In this document: piece by piece, positions 3,770 through 33,089 of the stretch
Position numbering within the stretch: position 1 is the stretch's first letter
Layout: each line of letters starts with the position of its first letter
Assembly (NCBI GenBank): GCA_937862865.1
Contig: CALMFJ010000090.1
Location: 1-33,105, forward strand
Origin: an uncultured Pseudomonadota bacterium
GTDB lineage: Bacteria; Desulfobacterota; Syntrophorhabdia; Syntrophorhabdales; Syntrophorhabdaceae
Length of the DNA: 33,105 nucleotides
Direction of reading: 5' to 3'
The notes under the pieces: model-generated
What the model was told of the DNA's origin: nothing
The model's database searches: none
What the model saw: only the letters and a program-made list of their open reading frames with translations
Program-made: the position numbers and the translations under genes

Positions 3770-3844
3770 AGGCTATGGGCGATGGGCTATAGGCGATGGG
3801 GATTTTCCTCTTGCCTGTAGCCTATTACCTATTGCCCGTCTTTT
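3770..3844. repeat. Family B heptad repeats, inverted pair (hairpin)
   Basis: On the plus strand five units run AGGCTAT, GGGCGAT, GGGCTAT, AGGCGAT, GGGGATT (3770-3804). They are followed by opposite-orientation units CTTGCCT, GTAGCCT, ATTACCT, ATTGCCC, GTCTTTT (3810-3844). The arms are imperfect reverse complements, for example GGGCTATAGGC against GCCTGTAGCCT, and can fold into a long hairpin followed by TCTTTT. The site lies between the convergent nadB and the gene ending at 3857, so a bidirectional terminator role is plausible but inferred. Confidence 0.85.
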
Positions 3845-14559: not shown

Positions 14560-14627
14560 AGGCTATGGGCTATGGGCTATGGGCTATGGGGAAAGATGGA
14601 AAGATCAGGCGATGGGCGATGGGCTAT
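14560..14627. repeat. Family B heptad repeats, two blocks, entering the end of pgsA
   Basis: AGGCTAT, GGGCTAT, GGGCTAT, GGGCTAT, GGGGAAA (14560-14594) and, out of register, AGGCGAT, GGGCGAT, GGGCTAT (14607-14627). The pgsA stop codon TAG (14624-14626 on the minus strand) is part of the last unit (GGGCTAT, ATAGCCC on the minus strand). The array separates pgsA from the gap promoter. Confidence 0.85.
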
Positions 14628-22135: not shown

Positions 22136-22164
22136 TTGACAGCCATGAAATACTTTTATACAAT
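22136..22164 (+). promoter_or_regulatory. Sigma70 promoter of the ParB-like/radical SAM operon
   Basis: TTGACA (22136-22141), 17 bases, TACAAT (22159-22164). The leader to ATG 22192 is about 20 bases with GGAAGG as the ribosome site. This is one of the best promoter matches in the window, suggesting constitutive expression. Confidence 0.7.
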
Positions 22165-22191: not shown

Positions 22192-22542
22192 ATGCCGTAC
22201 AGAAAAACATCGCAGTGGATCGTGGTATGCGTTTCGACGGCGATCACATCCTTCTGTGTTTATGCCCTCATGGCAAGCTTACGCACGGGCAACGTGAAAA
22301 ATGCCTGGATCTTCTTCGCCTTTTCGATCATATTTGTCATCCCCCTCCTTGTCACGCTTTTCCATATGATCGCCGACAGGAGCCCCGCTCTTGCAAATCT
22401 TCATAAGAAACATATCTCACTCGGGCAAAAGCACAAGACCACATTCATCCCTCACTGGTTTGTCACGTCCGGCGTGATCGTTATCGGTCTCATCATCCTT
22501 TACACGATAATAAAATGGCTTTTCATGTACTTCCAGCGATGA
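22192..22542 (+). CDS. Small membrane protein, unknown
   Basis: 116 aa with three hydrophobic segments (about 8-27, 38-58 and 91-112). A basic cytoplasmic or periplasmic loop, ANLHKKHISLGQKHKTTFIPHW, lies between the second and third. No family is recognised. GGAAGG precedes the ATG. Its stop overlaps the start of the ParB-like gene by ATGA, so it is the translationally coupled first gene of the operon. It could anchor or localise the ParB-like protein, but that is inference from order only. Confidence 0.7.
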   Translation: MPYRKTSQWIVVCVSTAITSFCVYALMASLRTGNVKNAWIFFAFSIIFVIPLLVTLFHMIADRSPALANLHKKHISLGQKHKTTFIPHWFVTSGVIVIGLIILYTIIKWLFMYFQR

Positions 22543-23447
22543 CCGATATCCGCCTGTCCACGATCGATCTCAAGGATACGCGCTTTAAGTTTTCATACGG
22601 CCGCGATAATGAGCGGCTTCGTTCATCGATAGGCATTGCCGGTATTGTCGAGCCCGTTATCCTCCTCGACCGCAAGCCCTATATCCCGGTGGCGGGCTTT
22701 CGCCGCCTCGACTGCGCACGGTCCCTGAAAATGAGGTCCGTCCCGGCCCTCATCGTTGATGTCCCCGAAAAGGAAGCGTTTCTCAGGGCGGTCCATACGA
22801 ACATCGAGCGCGGGTACAATATTATCGAAAAGGCGGACATCCTTTCCCGGATGGACGGCCTTGGCTTTCAGCGGCCGGATATCCTGGAACAGATGGAATA
22901 CCTCGGTCTTCATCCGGGGGAAAAGATGCTGAAGATATGCATTGCCGTCGCCGGGCTCGAACCTGTCCTCAAGGGTTTCATTTTCAACAACATCGCTTCA
23001 CTGCGAAACATCGAATTATTTTTGTTGTTCGATGCCGGCGAAAGGAAGAGGATCGTGCGGTCCCTCGCCGGCGTTCACCTGACGGAAAGCATGGTCCGGG
23101 AGATCTTTGAAATGCTCCACATCCTAAGGATACGGAAAGGAAAGCTGACAGGCGCGGACATCCCTGCCCTTCCGGATGCCGGGGCATTACGGGCGCATCT
23201 CAAAAAGAGGACGCACCCGGTCCTGACGTCGCTTGCGCGAAAATTGAAGGCCATACGCGACAAGATGGCCGTGCCCCCGGGGGTGGATATTAGGGTAGAC
23301 CCTTTCTTCGAAAAGGAGTATATTGATTTAGTATTGAGAATAAAGGACGATGACGGCATACGTACCGCTCTCGCTACAATTTCGGGATTAGCGGAAGCGG
23401 GTCACCTGAGGAGCATTCTTGACCTTACAAAAGGTACAATTCGTTGA
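22539..23447 (+). CDS. ParB-like nuclease/CTPase-fold protein without ParA
   Basis: 302 aa from ATG 22539 (ATGA overlap with the previous gene). Residues 1-75 follow the ParB N-domain: LRSSIGIAGIVEPVILLD, then PVAGFRRLDCARSLKMRSVPALIVD, corresponding to the GERR-type CTP-binding box with GFRR in place of GERR. HTNIERGYNIIEKADI (86-101) corresponds to the second box ENIxR. Residues about 105-175 fit the ParB helix-turn-helix region. The C-terminal 100 residues are basic and helical and do not obviously match the ParB dimerisation domain. No parA is adjacent. Its end overlaps the radical SAM gene by 29 bases, whose ribosome site lies inside it. Confidence 0.8.
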   Translation: MTDIRLSTIDLKDTRFKFSYGRDNERLRSSIGIAGIVEPVILLDRKPYIPVAGFRRLDCARSLKMRSVPALIVDVPEKEAFLRAVHTNIERGYNIIEKADILSRMDGLGFQRPDILEQMEYLGLHPGEKMLKICIAVAGLEPVLKGFIFNNIASLRNIELFLLFDAGERKRIVRSLAGVHLTESMVREIFEMLHILRIRKGKLTGADIPALPDAGALRAHLKKRTHPVLTSLARKLKAIRDKMAVPPGVDIRVDPFFEKEYIDLVLRIKDDDGIRTALATISGLAEAGHLRSILDLTKGTIR

Positions 23448-24366
23448 CAACAGCACAGACATAATTCGAAAATGTCCCGGCACGAAGCATCATATCTGCT
23501 GCGGGTACCAGACAATAGATCTCATAGAAGGCTGCGTTCTTTCCTGTTCATACTGCATACTCAAGGCGTATCTCAAGAACGATGTAATAAAGGTCTCCTG
23601 CGACCCGGATGCGACAACCCGTGAGCTCGACAGGCTTATCGATGGCTCGGCTAAACACATCTTGAGGTTCGGGACGGGAGAGCTCTCGGACAGCCTCGCC
23701 CTCGACAGGCAGCTCAGGCTCAACCGTTTTCTCGTCGACTATTTTGGGCACAAGAAAAAAGCGATCCTCGAACTGAAATCGAAGTGGGCGGATTTCCGCC
23801 ACCTCATACCTTACCTCAATCCCTTCACGGTCATATCGTTTTCCGTGTCCCCGCAAAGGTTCATCGATTCCGAAGAACAAAGGACAAGCCCCATACACAA
23901 GCGCCTGAAGGCCGCGCGGCTGGCACAGGACAACGGCTGTTTTGTCGGCCTTCATTTCGACCCCGTCGTCATCTATGACGGGTTCGAAAGGGATTACCGG
24001 TATCTCATCGAAGATATCGGGAGAATTCTTGACCCCGGAAAGATCATCTGGATCAGCCTCGGGCTTTTGCGATTCCCCCCTGCACTTTACGGGCAGCTCA
24101 TCGAGAAAAAGCGCAGATACCTCCTGAGCGGAGAATTCATACGGGGAGAGGACGGCAAGTACCGTTATATAAAACCCGAACGGATAAGGATATACAAGCT
24201 CCTGTACAAATTATTGAAAAAGATCGACAGCCGGCTTTTCATTTACCTGTGCATGGAAAGGGCTGATATATGGAAAGAGGTCTTCGGCATAACAATGGAG
24301 AGCAGCGAAGGCCTGGTCCGGCTCTTTGACGAACGAATAAAGAACCTGTATGGAGGAATGTTATGA
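23419..24366 (+). CDS. Spore photoproduct lyase-like radical SAM protein
   Basis: 315 aa from TTG 23419, supported by GAGGAG five bases upstream; no ATG is available before residue 290. It has the SPL-family start CGYQTIDLIEGC and radical SAM motif CVLSCSYC (Cys39, Cys43, Cys46). FGTGELSDSLALD (84-96) then aligns with the region where B. subtilis SplB has its hydrogen-donor Cys; here that position appears to be Glu. ISFSVSPQRFIDSEEQRTSPIHKRLKAARLA and GLHFDPVVIYDGFERDYRYLIEDI also fit the family. No spore genes are present, so repair of spore photoproduct is unlikely. It is coupled to a ParB-like protein upstream and overlaps an SDR gene by ATGA. Confidence 0.85.
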   Translation: MTLQKVQFVDNSTDIIRKCPGTKHHICCGYQTIDLIEGCVLSCSYCILKAYLKNDVIKVSCDPDATTRELDRLIDGSAKHILRFGTGELSDSLALDRQLRLNRFLVDYFGHKKKAILELKSKWADFRHLIPYLNPFTVISFSVSPQRFIDSEEQRTSPIHKRLKAARLAQDNGCFVGLHFDPVVIYDGFERDYRYLIEDIGRILDPGKIIWISLGLLRFPPALYGQLIEKKRRYLLSGEFIRGEDGKYRYIKPERIRIYKLLYKLLKKIDSRLFIYLCMERADIWKEVFGITMESSEGLVRLFDERIKNLYGGML

Positions 24367-25148
24367 GATTCGAGAATAAAGTCGTTTTTATCACCGGCGG
24401 CACAAAAGGCCTCGGCAAGGCCATGGCGCAGGCGTTTCTCGCGGAAGGGGCTTCGGTCGCCGTTAACGGCCGCAATAAAGAGGCTGTCGAAAAATTTGCC
24501 GAGGAATTCAAGGGACAGCAGGTCCTCGCATTCGAAGGCGACATCGCCGACTACGATGGGATGGAAGCGACGGCCTCAAAAACATATGAGACATTTGGCA
24601 GAGTTGACATCCTCGTCAACAACGCCGGCATCGTCAATCCCCTCGTACCGTCCGTCAAGATCAAGAAGGAAGACTTCGGCAAGGTGATCGACGTAAATTT
24701 GAAGGGAACATTTTACGCGACCCAGATCTTCGGCAAAAGAATGGTCGCGCAGGGCTCCGGCCGGATCGTCAGCATAGCGTCCCAGGTTGCGCTTTTCGGG
24801 GAAAAAGGGTTCCTCCCGTATGCCATCAGCAAGGCTGGGCTTATGACAATGACCCGCCAGCTCGCGTATGAATGGTCGAAGTCCGGCGTGACGCTCTGTG
24901 CGGTGGCCCCCGGTTTCATCAAGGGCGGCATGAACGAAGGGCTTATCCGAAAAGAGGTGTTCGTCAACTACCTCTCCGGCAGAACACCCATCAGCAGGAT
25001 GGGCACGGTCGACGAACTGGTCTCGACCGTACTTTTCCTCGCTTCGGACGGTGCGGCCTACGTCAACGGCGAAACCATCGTCATGGACGGCGGGATGACG
25101 GGGTACACCCCTGAGGGCCTTCTTGATTTCATGTCAAAAGGAAAGTAG
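24363..25148 (+). CDS. SDR family oxidoreductase
   Basis: 261-aa classical short-chain dehydrogenase/reductase. The cofactor motif is TGGTKGLG (about 11-18), with NNAGIV, SIASQ containing the probable catalytic Ser, and YAISK (YxxxK). VAPGFIKGGMNEGL and the terminal ETIVMDGGMTGY are typical of FabG-like members. NGR after the second strand hints at NADPH use. Substrate cannot be deduced. It overlaps the radical SAM gene by ATGA and is followed three bases later by the DUF4013 membrane gene, so it belongs to the same five-gene operon. Confidence 0.92.
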   Translation: MRFENKVVFITGGTKGLGKAMAQAFLAEGASVAVNGRNKEAVEKFAEEFKGQQVLAFEGDIADYDGMEATASKTYETFGRVDILVNNAGIVNPLVPSVKIKKEDFGKVIDVNLKGTFYATQIFGKRMVAQGSGRIVSIASQVALFGEKGFLPYAISKAGLMTMTRQLAYEWSKSGVTLCAVAPGFIKGGMNEGLIRKEVFVNYLSGRTPISRMGTVDELVSTVLFLASDGAAYVNGETIVMDGGMTGYTPEGLLDFMSKGK

Positions 25149-25151
25149 TTG

Positions 25152-25811
25152 ATGGACATTATTCCGTTTATACGCTTCACCATCAATTCGCGGTACATCA
25201 ACCGGTGGATCTACGGGGGCCTCGTCCTTTTTATCCCCGTCCTCAATTTCTTCTCGATAGGGTTCCTCTGCCGTACCTCCCGTCTCATCATGGTGGGAGG
25301 TATGGGCCTCGCCACATGGCAGGACAAATACGAGACATGGATAGAGGGGATCAAGCTCCTTTTCGTTTTTATCCTCTACAACGCCATTCCCTTCTTCATG
25401 TTCTCGAGCGGGTTCTTCCTGACGACGCTGAACAGTTTTACCGCTTTCTTCGGCCATCTCATGATCAAGGCCGCCACGTTCGTCGTCCTGCCGATATGCT
25501 GTTTTTTCCTGCCTTTTGCGTTCGCCATTTTCGCGGAGCGCCTCGATTTCCGGGAAGCCCTGGAATTCGAATCGATATTCCGCGCGATCAAGGAGGTCCT
25601 CCTCGAATACATAATCGGGTACGTCGCGACAATGGCGGCTGTTTATATCTCCCTCTTTTTCATGCGCATCCCCTATCTCATCGGTTTTATCATCTCATCG
25701 GTTTTGACCTACTATTCCCTTCTTCTGTCCACGTTCTACTTTACCGAGCTCTACCGCAGGACAAGCCTCTGCCTCGCCCAGATCAGGGAAGACGAATCCG
25801 CGTTCGAATGA
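25152..25811 (+). CDS. DUF4013-type membrane protein
   Basis: 219 aa from ATG 25152 (a TTG three bases earlier is in frame but less likely; AAAGGAAAG serves either). It has five to six hydrophobic segments. The pattern near the N-terminus, GGLVLFIPVLNFFSIGFLCRTSRLIMVGG followed by WQDKYETWIEGIKLLFVF, is that of DUF4013 proteins. The final 20 residues are polar and acidic. Its function is unknown. It is the last gene of the operon. Confidence 0.8.
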   Translation: MDIIPFIRFTINSRYINRWIYGGLVLFIPVLNFFSIGFLCRTSRLIMVGGMGLATWQDKYETWIEGIKLLFVFILYNAIPFFMFSSGFFLTTLNSFTAFFGHLMIKAATFVVLPICCFFLPFAFAIFAERLDFREALEFESIFRAIKEVLLEYIIGYVATMAAVYISLFFMRIPYLIGFIISSVLTYYSLLLSTFYFTELYRRTSLCLAQIREDESAFE

Positions 25812-25950: not shown

Positions 25951-25975
25951 ATCTGCCTCACCTCACCCCTCACTC

Positions 25976-26052
25976 ATTGCCCTTCGCCTATTGCCCATAG
26001 CCTATTGCCCGTCACCCATCGCCCATCGCCTATTGCCCATAGCCCATCGCCC
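25976..26052. repeat. Family B heptad repeats, eleven units
   Basis: The longest array of the window, in perfect register: ATTGCCC, TTCGCCT, ATTGCCC, ATAGCCT, ATTGCCC, GTCACCC, ATCGCCC, ATCGCCT, ATTGCCC, ATAGCCC, ATCGCCC. Its consensus is ATnGCCY and it varies mainly at positions 3 and 7. It lies between tRNA-His and the STAS gene promoter. With the tRNA and promoters it accounts for most of the 25812-26114 gap. Confidence 0.9.
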
Positions 26053-26061
26053 GTTATTCTA

Positions 26062-32979: not shown

Positions 32980-32984
32980 AGACC

Positions 32985-33089
32985 GTTCTACGTTCTACGT
33001 TCCGCGTTCTACGTTGAAAAGACCGGAACTGATACAGGGAGCTTCTTAACGTAGAACGTAGAACGTAGAACGCGGAACGTAGAACCTCA
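32985..33089. repeat. Family A heptad repeats, long inverted pair
   Basis: The left arm (32985-33015) is four and a half units in the CTACGTT orientation. The right arm (33048-33089) reads AACGTAG, AACGTAG, AACGTAG, AACGCGG, AACGTAG, AACCTCA. Two AACGTAG units flanking one AACGCGG, plus three bases, are a perfect 24-bp inverted match, including the variant unit. The 32-base loop shows nothing else. Confidence 0.9.

What the first reader, a model, noticed from the sequence alone, without database searches (positions are those of the whole stretch)
22192..25811. Five-gene operon coupling a ParB-like protein to an SPL-like radical SAM enzyme
Seen: one near-consensus promoter, then a small membrane protein, a ParB-like protein with both CTP-box-like regions, a radical SAM protein of the spore photoproduct lyase family, an SDR and a DUF4013 membrane protein, joined by ATGA or 29-base overlaps. 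Known: ParB proteins load on DNA using CTP and SPL repairs a thymine dimer in spores. Inference: with no parA and no spore genes, this could be a DNA- or nucleotide-directed radical enzyme guided by a ParB-like clamp, with membrane partners. The pairing is not one I know as described.
Basis: partly seen in the sequence, partly recalled or inferred. Interest (0 to 1): 0.72.

Follow-up and report, generated by a model that had tools for sequence, protein, structure and literature searches.

The report
ParB-like plus radical SAM gene module
Two anaerobe-rich bacterial phyla carry an undescribed set of partner genes: a relative of a DNA-segregation clamp protein, a relative of a DNA-repair radical enzyme that has lost its repair residues, and a sugar-transferring enzyme; the three almost always occur together, so they probably do one job that nobody has yet identified.

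Summary
Five tightly packed genes lie at 22192-25811 behind an 11/12 promoter match. The second is a true ParB homologue (CTP and central domains), and the third has the spore photoproduct lyase (SPL) fold.

The ParB-SPL pairing is not local. In 148 Desulfobacterota genomes, 82 carry both genes, 3 only SPL, 2 only ParB (both at contig ends) and 61 neither. The two are adjacent in 56 genomes from 24 families. In Omnitrophota, all 15 unfused SPL-like genomes carry the ParB-like gene, unlinked. Six others have the ParB-like C-terminal helices fused to the SPL-like enzyme and lack the separate gene.

Each pair is found adjacent without the third.

The membrane protein, SDR and DUF4013 genes are lineage-specific companions.

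The SPL-like enzyme lacks SPL's hydrogen-donor Cys (invariant Glu) and its Tyr, so SPL chemistry is not expected. Best reading: the ParB-like protein is an NTP-dependent adaptor docking a radical enzyme by its C-terminal region. A DNA target is plausible but unproven; a glycan or small-molecule pathway is a strong rival.

The parts
22136..22164 (+). sigma-70-like promoter, TTGACA-17-TACAAT
   Evidence: 11 of 12 matches; consensus match only
22192..22542 (+). 116-aa membrane protein, no family; companion limited to the genus and one relative in the family
22539..23447 (+). orphan ParB-like protein, 302 aa; core component
   Evidence: Pfam ParB_N above cut-off; profile against PDB ParB/Noc E 7e-28; AF2 pLDDT 94, Foldseek/VIA top hits ParB, KorB, Noc
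22611..22805 (+). ParB_N nucleotide-pocket region: G53-x-x-R56 (44/44 in family), N88, R91, N94, E97; T87 where most relatives have Asp/Glu
23085..23267 (+). C-terminal helical region (residues 183-243) equivalent to the segment fused to the SPL-like enzyme in Omnitrophota and kept in the ~170-aa truncated partners; predicted docking module for the radical SAM enzyme
   Evidence: hhalign 96.5%, E 8e-10
23419..24366 (+). SPL-fold radical SAM protein, 315 aa; core component; lacks the N-terminal ~56 residues of SPL
   Evidence: Pfam SPL 63 bits; VIA Z 29.0, 2.1 A/271 to 4fhf; profile against PDB SPL E 4e-42
23533..23556 (+). CxxxCxxC radical SAM cluster motif (C39, C43, C46)
   Evidence: invariant in 62/62
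23680..23682 (+). E88 in place of SPL hydrogen-donor Cys141; I47 replaces Tyr99
   Evidence: E88 62/62; alignment with B. velezensis SplB
23473..23502 (+). family-specific CPGT-x-ICC motif (C19, C27, C28); with C278 (24250-24252) possible ligands of a second cluster
   Evidence: C19 61/62, C28 61/62, C278 61/62, C27 58/62
24363..25148 (+). SDR oxidoreductase, order-level companion (also in family f10)
25149..25811 (+). DUF4013 membrane protein, order-level companion

Best explanation
The ParB-like and SPL-like proteins, with a GT2 glycosyltransferase encoded elsewhere in this genome, form one three-part system. The ParB-like protein is an adaptor: its C-terminal region docks the radical SAM enzyme, while its N-terminal domain binds a nucleotide (probably CTP) and its central domain associates with DNA, so that enzyme placement depends on nucleotide state. 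The SPL-fold enzyme cleaves SAM and performs a radical C-H reaction that is not spore-photoproduct reversal. The GT2 then acts on the product or in the same pathway. Shown: homologies, folds, co-occurrence, adjacency, fusion. Inferred: docking, nucleotide binding, DNA association, order of steps, any sugar transfer to the radical product. My estimates: one functional unit about 0.9; docking through the C-terminal region about 0.7; nucleotide binding about 0.6; DNA as the place of action about 0.4.
For: Co-occurrence of SPL-like and ParB-like 82/3/2/61 in 148 genomes. All three genes in 74, none in 59. ParB-SPL adjacent in 56 genomes of 24 families, GT2-ParB in 26 genomes of 10 families, GT2-SPL without ParB between them in family f17 and Omnitrophota. 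In family f23 GT2-ParB is adjacent with SPL elsewhere. Omnitrophota: 15/15 unfused SPL-like genomes have the ParB-like gene, 0/6 fused ones do. ParB-like C-terminal helices fused to SPL-like, hhalign 96.5%. C-terminal-half-only partners in f40. Distance matrices of the two proteins correlate, r 0.81 outside the order. Nucleotide-pocket residues kept. ParB homology spans nucleotide and central domains. Both proteins basic, pI 9.7 and 9.1.
Against: The nucleotide and HTH domains are absent from f40 and from the fused Omnitrophota versions, so neither can be essential to the core reaction there. The recognition helix is not parS-like. Invariant or near-invariant polar residues (E118, K120, H179, D181) sit where SPL has non-polar or other residues, so the substrate probably differs from a thymine dimer. 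The GT2 resembles polysaccharide enzymes. Co-occurrence is not corrected for phylogeny. G161 (98% complete) has SPL-like and GT2 but no ParB-like gene. Four Omnitrophota genomes have ParB-like without SPL-like. The window protein has T87 where most relatives have an acidic residue.
Confidence: 0.42

Rival explanations
1. A small-molecule, cofactor or envelope-glycan pathway. The radical enzyme modifies a polar metabolite or sugar, the GT2 glycosylates it, and the ParB-like protein is a nucleotide-dependent scaffold not acting on DNA, as other members of the ParB/Srx fold do (SerK, sulfiredoxin).
For: GT2 nearest to polysaccharide, mycofactocin and arsenosugar enzymes, all far below cut-offs. 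Polar invariant residues in the enzyme core. ParB nucleotide and HTH domains dispensable in f40 and in fusions. Srx, SerK and SbnI share the N-domain fold. Family-wide, apparently vertical distribution.
Against: ParB homology includes the central DNA-binding domain, which SerK and Srx lack. The nearest enzyme fold by far is a DNA-repair enzyme. No sugar-nucleotide or cofactor genes are consistently linked.
Confidence: 0.36
2. DNA-lesion repair: the SPL-like enzyme reverses a base lesion and the ParB-like protein slides on DNA to find it.
For: SPL fold, and partly conserved SPL core residues (K175, R216, R274, R305 equivalents). SplB-like enzymes occur in SOS-linked operons (PMC3765255).
Against: Donor Cys and Tyr99 are lost. 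The GT2 partner is unexplained. No repair genes recur next to it.
Confidence: 0.1
3. The ParB-like protein is a DNA-binding regulator of its own operon, like KorB or VirB, rather than a partner of the enzyme.
For: Best VIA hit is KorB (Z 12.2). Often first in the pair.
Against: Co-occurs with the enzyme even when unlinked. The C-terminal half alone persists or is fused to the enzyme.
Confidence: 0.07
4. Chance neighbours carried by conserved gene order, without shared function.
For: Inheritance looks vertical. purC is also often next to ParB-like.
Against: Near-perfect co-occurrence when unlinked, in two phyla, plus fusions.
Confidence: 0.03

Closest known systems
Spore photoproduct lyase (SplB; Pfam PF20903, TIGR04070)
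   Same: Same fold (Z 29, 2.1 A over 271 residues), CxxxCxxC cluster, Y97, K175, R216, R274 and R305 equivalents, and the N-terminal domain in most relatives
   Different: Donor Cys141 is Glu, Tyr99 is Ile; extra cysteines C19/C27/C28/C278; different invariant polar residues; no splA or sporulation context seen; the window copy lacks the N-terminal ~56 residues; score far below the TIGR04070 equivalog cut-off (73 against 400)
ParB/Noc/KorB CTPase clamps (canonical ParB of the same genome at C101)
   Same: Nucleotide-pocket motifs GxxR and NxxR-xxN-xxE, central domain, overall length
   Different: No ParA beside it, a separate canonical parAB is present, diverged central HTH, C-terminal region linked to a radical enzyme
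Orphan ParB-CTPase-fold proteins surveyed in PMC12704722
   Same: An orphan ParB-type nucleotide domain co-opted with an enzyme
   Different: That paper's main text names methyltransferases, DndB, SerK and others, but no radical SAM enzyme, photoproduct lyase or glycosyltransferase partner
TIGR03886 'spore photoproduct lyase family' (e.g. Deinococcus)
   Same: SPL-like radical SAM with Glu at the donor position
   Different: No CPGT-ICC motif; no ParB-like or GT2 partner annotated in the one neighbourhood viewed
Polysaccharide-type GT2 enzymes (TuaG, chondroitin synthase domain)
   Same: GT-A fold family of the third partner
   Different: Distinct subfamily (287-452 bits on its own profile against 229 or less for other GT2s), tied by occurrence to the ParB-like/SPL-like pair

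Membership tests
Spore photoproduct lyase | SPL fold | tested here: met
Spore photoproduct lyase | CxxxCxxC radical SAM cluster motif | tested here: met
   62/62
Spore photoproduct lyase | Hydrogen-donor Cys141 (B. subtilis numbering) | tested here: not met
   E88 in 62/62
Spore photoproduct lyase | Tyr99 of the radical relay | tested here: not met
   I47, consensus Ile/Val
Spore photoproduct lyase | TIGR04070 equivalog score | tested here: not met
   73.4 against 400
Spore photoproduct lyase | Repairs spore photoproduct | not testable with these tools
   biochemistry needed
ParB-type CTPase | ParB_N domain above the curated cut-off | tested here: met
   27.1 against 26.3
ParB-type CTPase | GxxR and (E/D)NxxR nucleotide motifs | tested here: met
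   G53, R56 44/44; R91 43/44; N88 38/44; but T87 in the window protein
ParB-type CTPase | Central DNA-binding domain homologous to ParB/Noc | tested here: met
   profile match to positions ~8-226; DNA binding itself not tested
ParB-type CTPase | CTP binding, clamp closure, hydrolysis | not testable with these tools
   assay needed
ParABS partition system | ParA partner beside the gene | tested here: not met
   none in window; canonical parAB on C101
ParABS partition system | parS-like site near the gene | tested here: not met
   none in the window at 3 or fewer mismatches; two in the genome on other contigs
SerK/SbnI/sulfiredoxin metabolic members of the fold | Closest fold match | tested here: inconclusive
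   N-domain only, Z 7-10, below ParB/KorB

The most novel reading that the evidence does not exclude
An anaerobic DNA-base modification system: a CTP-switched ParB-type clamp carries a radical SAM enzyme along DNA to functionalise a base carbon without oxygen, and a GT2 enzyme glycosylates it, an oxygen-independent counterpart of base-J synthesis, conserved across two phyla.
Probability: 0.15. Interest if true: 0.95.

Novelty: new variant of a known kind. Interest (0 to 1): 0.72.

Why it matters
ParB-type CTP switches are known to work in chromosome segregation, nucleoid occlusion and gene regulation. A lineage-wide switch domain partnered with a radical SAM enzyme would extend that fold into radical enzymology. 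The set is conserved in about half of the sampled Desulfobacterota genomes and in many Omnitrophota, so an unrecognised process may be widespread in anaerobes. It is directly testable: three genes, clear partners, a defined docking region and defined residues to mutate.

Tried and rejected
Phage or mobile origin: no SPL-like relative in viral contigs, and no complete relative on plasmids. The same viral scan with the ParB-like alignment could not be run for lack of conserved stretches. Anti-phage defence: no informative PADLOC match. A fourth conserved partner: neighbours of unlinked GT2 and ParB-like genes give purC (about ten loci), a GH57-like gene in the order, IspH and others, none consistent. 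Literature: no held paper combines ParB with spore photoproduct lyase and radical SAM, or ParB-like with radical SAM and operon. Four papers hold ParB, radical SAM and glycosyltransferase together, all apparently unrelated by title and abstract; they were not read. Subscription papers are not covered. N-terminal extensions of a diverged Omnitrophota SPL-like group show no relation to the ParB-like C-terminus (hhalign 7.8%).
Full report
Anatomy. The promoter-like site at 22136-22164 matches 11 of 12 consensus positions. The 302-aa protein passes the Pfam ParB_N cut-off narrowly (27.1 against 26.3) and the 315-aa protein passes the SPL cut-off clearly (63 against 27). The genome carries a canonical parA-parB pair elsewhere, between rsmG-like and ATP-synthase-like genes (named by eye from the translations), so the window protein is an orphan second ParB.

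Is it really ParB? Yes. A profile of 44 relatives matches M. xanthus ParB and Noc over profile positions up to 8-226, i.e. the nucleotide domain and the central domain, with E 7e-28 for the best. The AF2 model has mean pLDDT 94. Foldseek ranks nucleotide-bound ParB first, and VIA gives KorB Z 12.2 over 192 residues; sulfiredoxin and serine kinase match mainly the N-domain. GxxR is invariant in 44/44, and R91, N88, N94 and E97 are nearly so. The window protein has Thr where most relatives have Asp or Glu before N88, which could affect hydrolysis (inference).

Is it really SPL? By fold, yes: Z 29.0, 2.1 A over 271 residues, against Z 15 for the next family. By chemistry, probably not: the hydrogen-donor Cys141 is Glu in 62/62 relatives and Tyr99 is Ile. 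The roles of Cys141 and Tyr99 in SPL are from my own knowledge. The family adds C19, C27, C28 and C278, nearly invariant outside one diverged row (Ser at C27 in f40), which could bind a second cluster (inference). The Glu is shared with a Deinococcus SPL-family protein, so it is not diagnostic. The window copy starts at about SPL residue 57.

Conservation. In the closest 60 genomes, 50 have a match to the SPL-like protein. In the loci of the same order, ParB-like, SPL-like and DUF4013 stay together, with the SDR in all but one locus; the 116-aa membrane protein is confined to the genus and one relative. Across 148 genomes of the phylum, SPL-like and ParB-like are both present in 82, SPL-like alone in 3 (G154 and G182 are 80-82% complete, G161 is a real exception), ParB-like alone in 2 (both hits at contig ends), and neither in 61; Fisher p 3e-35, uncorrected for phylogeny. 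They are adjacent in 56 of the 82 genomes, in 24 of 35 families. Where unlinked, both are still present. Pairwise distances of the two proteins correlate (r 0.89; 0.81 outside the order; shuffles at most 0.24).

A third component. In many families a GT2 glycosyltransferase lies directly upstream of ParB-like. In Omnitrophota and family f17, where ParB-like is elsewhere, it lies directly upstream of SPL-like. On its own profile this subfamily scores 287-452 bits, other GT2s 229 or less. All three genes occur in 74 of 148 genomes and none in 59. In family f23 GT2 and ParB-like are adjacent with SPL-like on another contig; in the window's order ParB-like and SPL-like are adjacent with GT2 elsewhere (G000:C36:23606-24418). 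Each pair is thus found without the third.

Second phylum and fusion. A sample of 58 genomes around an Omnitrophota relative gives 15 unfused SPL-like genes, all in genomes that also have ParB-like (14 full length, one C-terminal fragment), at unlinked places. In six others the SPL-like protein carries an N-terminal extension matching the helical part of the ParB-like C-terminal region (hhalign probability 96.5%, E 8e-10; reversed sequences give no hit), and none of these six genomes has a separate ParB-like gene. In Desulfobacterota family f40 the partner is a ~170-aa protein holding only that C-terminal half. The C-terminal region is therefore the part most tightly tied to the enzyme. ParB-like without SPL-like occurs in four Omnitrophota genomes; completeness there is not told. 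Seven further, diverged or partial SPL-like genes in this sample have no ParB-like gene.

Mechanism. The evidence supports one functional unit, with the ParB-like C-terminal region as docking module. The nucleotide-dependent DNA association of the rest is inferred from homology and is not always retained. What the radical reaction and the sugar transfer act on is unknown. A DNA target fits the ParB and SPL ancestry; a metabolite or envelope glycan fits the polar enzyme core, the GT2 resemblance and the loss of ParB domains in some lineages. I put these close together, with DNA slightly ahead only because two of three components descend from DNA-acting families.

Against the literature. The 2025 survey of ParB-CTPase folds (PMC12704722) describes orphan ParBs and many fusions, with ATP, GTP or CTP binding, but its main text does not contain the words radical, photoproduct or glycosyltransferase. 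SplB-like enzymes in SOS operons are described in PMC3765255, without ParB. Searches for ParB with SPL and radical SAM, and for ParB-like with radical SAM and operon, gave no paper. ParB with radical SAM and glycosyltransferase gave four, unrelated by title and abstract and not read.

Limits. No co-folding of the pair could be run, sampling covers two phyla, thresholds for presence were set by eye on bimodal scores (canonical ParB up to about 106 bits, lowest accepted full-length ParB-like 118), the presence lists were copied by hand from the search outputs, and no experiment bears on function.

Noticed in passing
L057, L106, L120, L124, L125, L212, L214, L216, L221, L225: purC (SAICAR synthase) lies directly upstream of the ParB-like gene in about ten Desulfobacterota loci, linked or unlinked to SPL-like; perhaps the ancestral position of the gene.
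   Followed up: partly
L186:5504-8440 (G000:C36), L201, L202: In the window's order the GT2 partner sits directly after a gene whose protein looks like a GH57-type glucan enzyme (by eye, not tested).
   Followed up: no
L227 (Fusobacterium vincentii NZ_CP084075, 1870-3741): An SPL-like radical SAM domain appears fused behind a nucleoside phosphorylase/nucleosidase-like domain in one 623-aa frame; the N-terminal domain was judged by eye.
   Followed up: no
window 25966-26054, also 3771-3800, 14561-14590, 32984-33085: Clusters of 7/14-base tandem repeats lie after tRNA-His and at other places; several share the CCCATCG/GGCTATG type of unit.
   Followed up: no
G000:C164:17609-17764 (L063): A third ParB_N protein (508-aa frame) in the same genome, function not examined.
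   Followed up: no
L050, L095, L097, L099 (family f13): Where SPL-like is unlinked from ParB-like in this family it sits next to a ThiI-like/NFACT-R protein, in L050 with a THEP1-type NTPase on the other side.
   Followed up: partly
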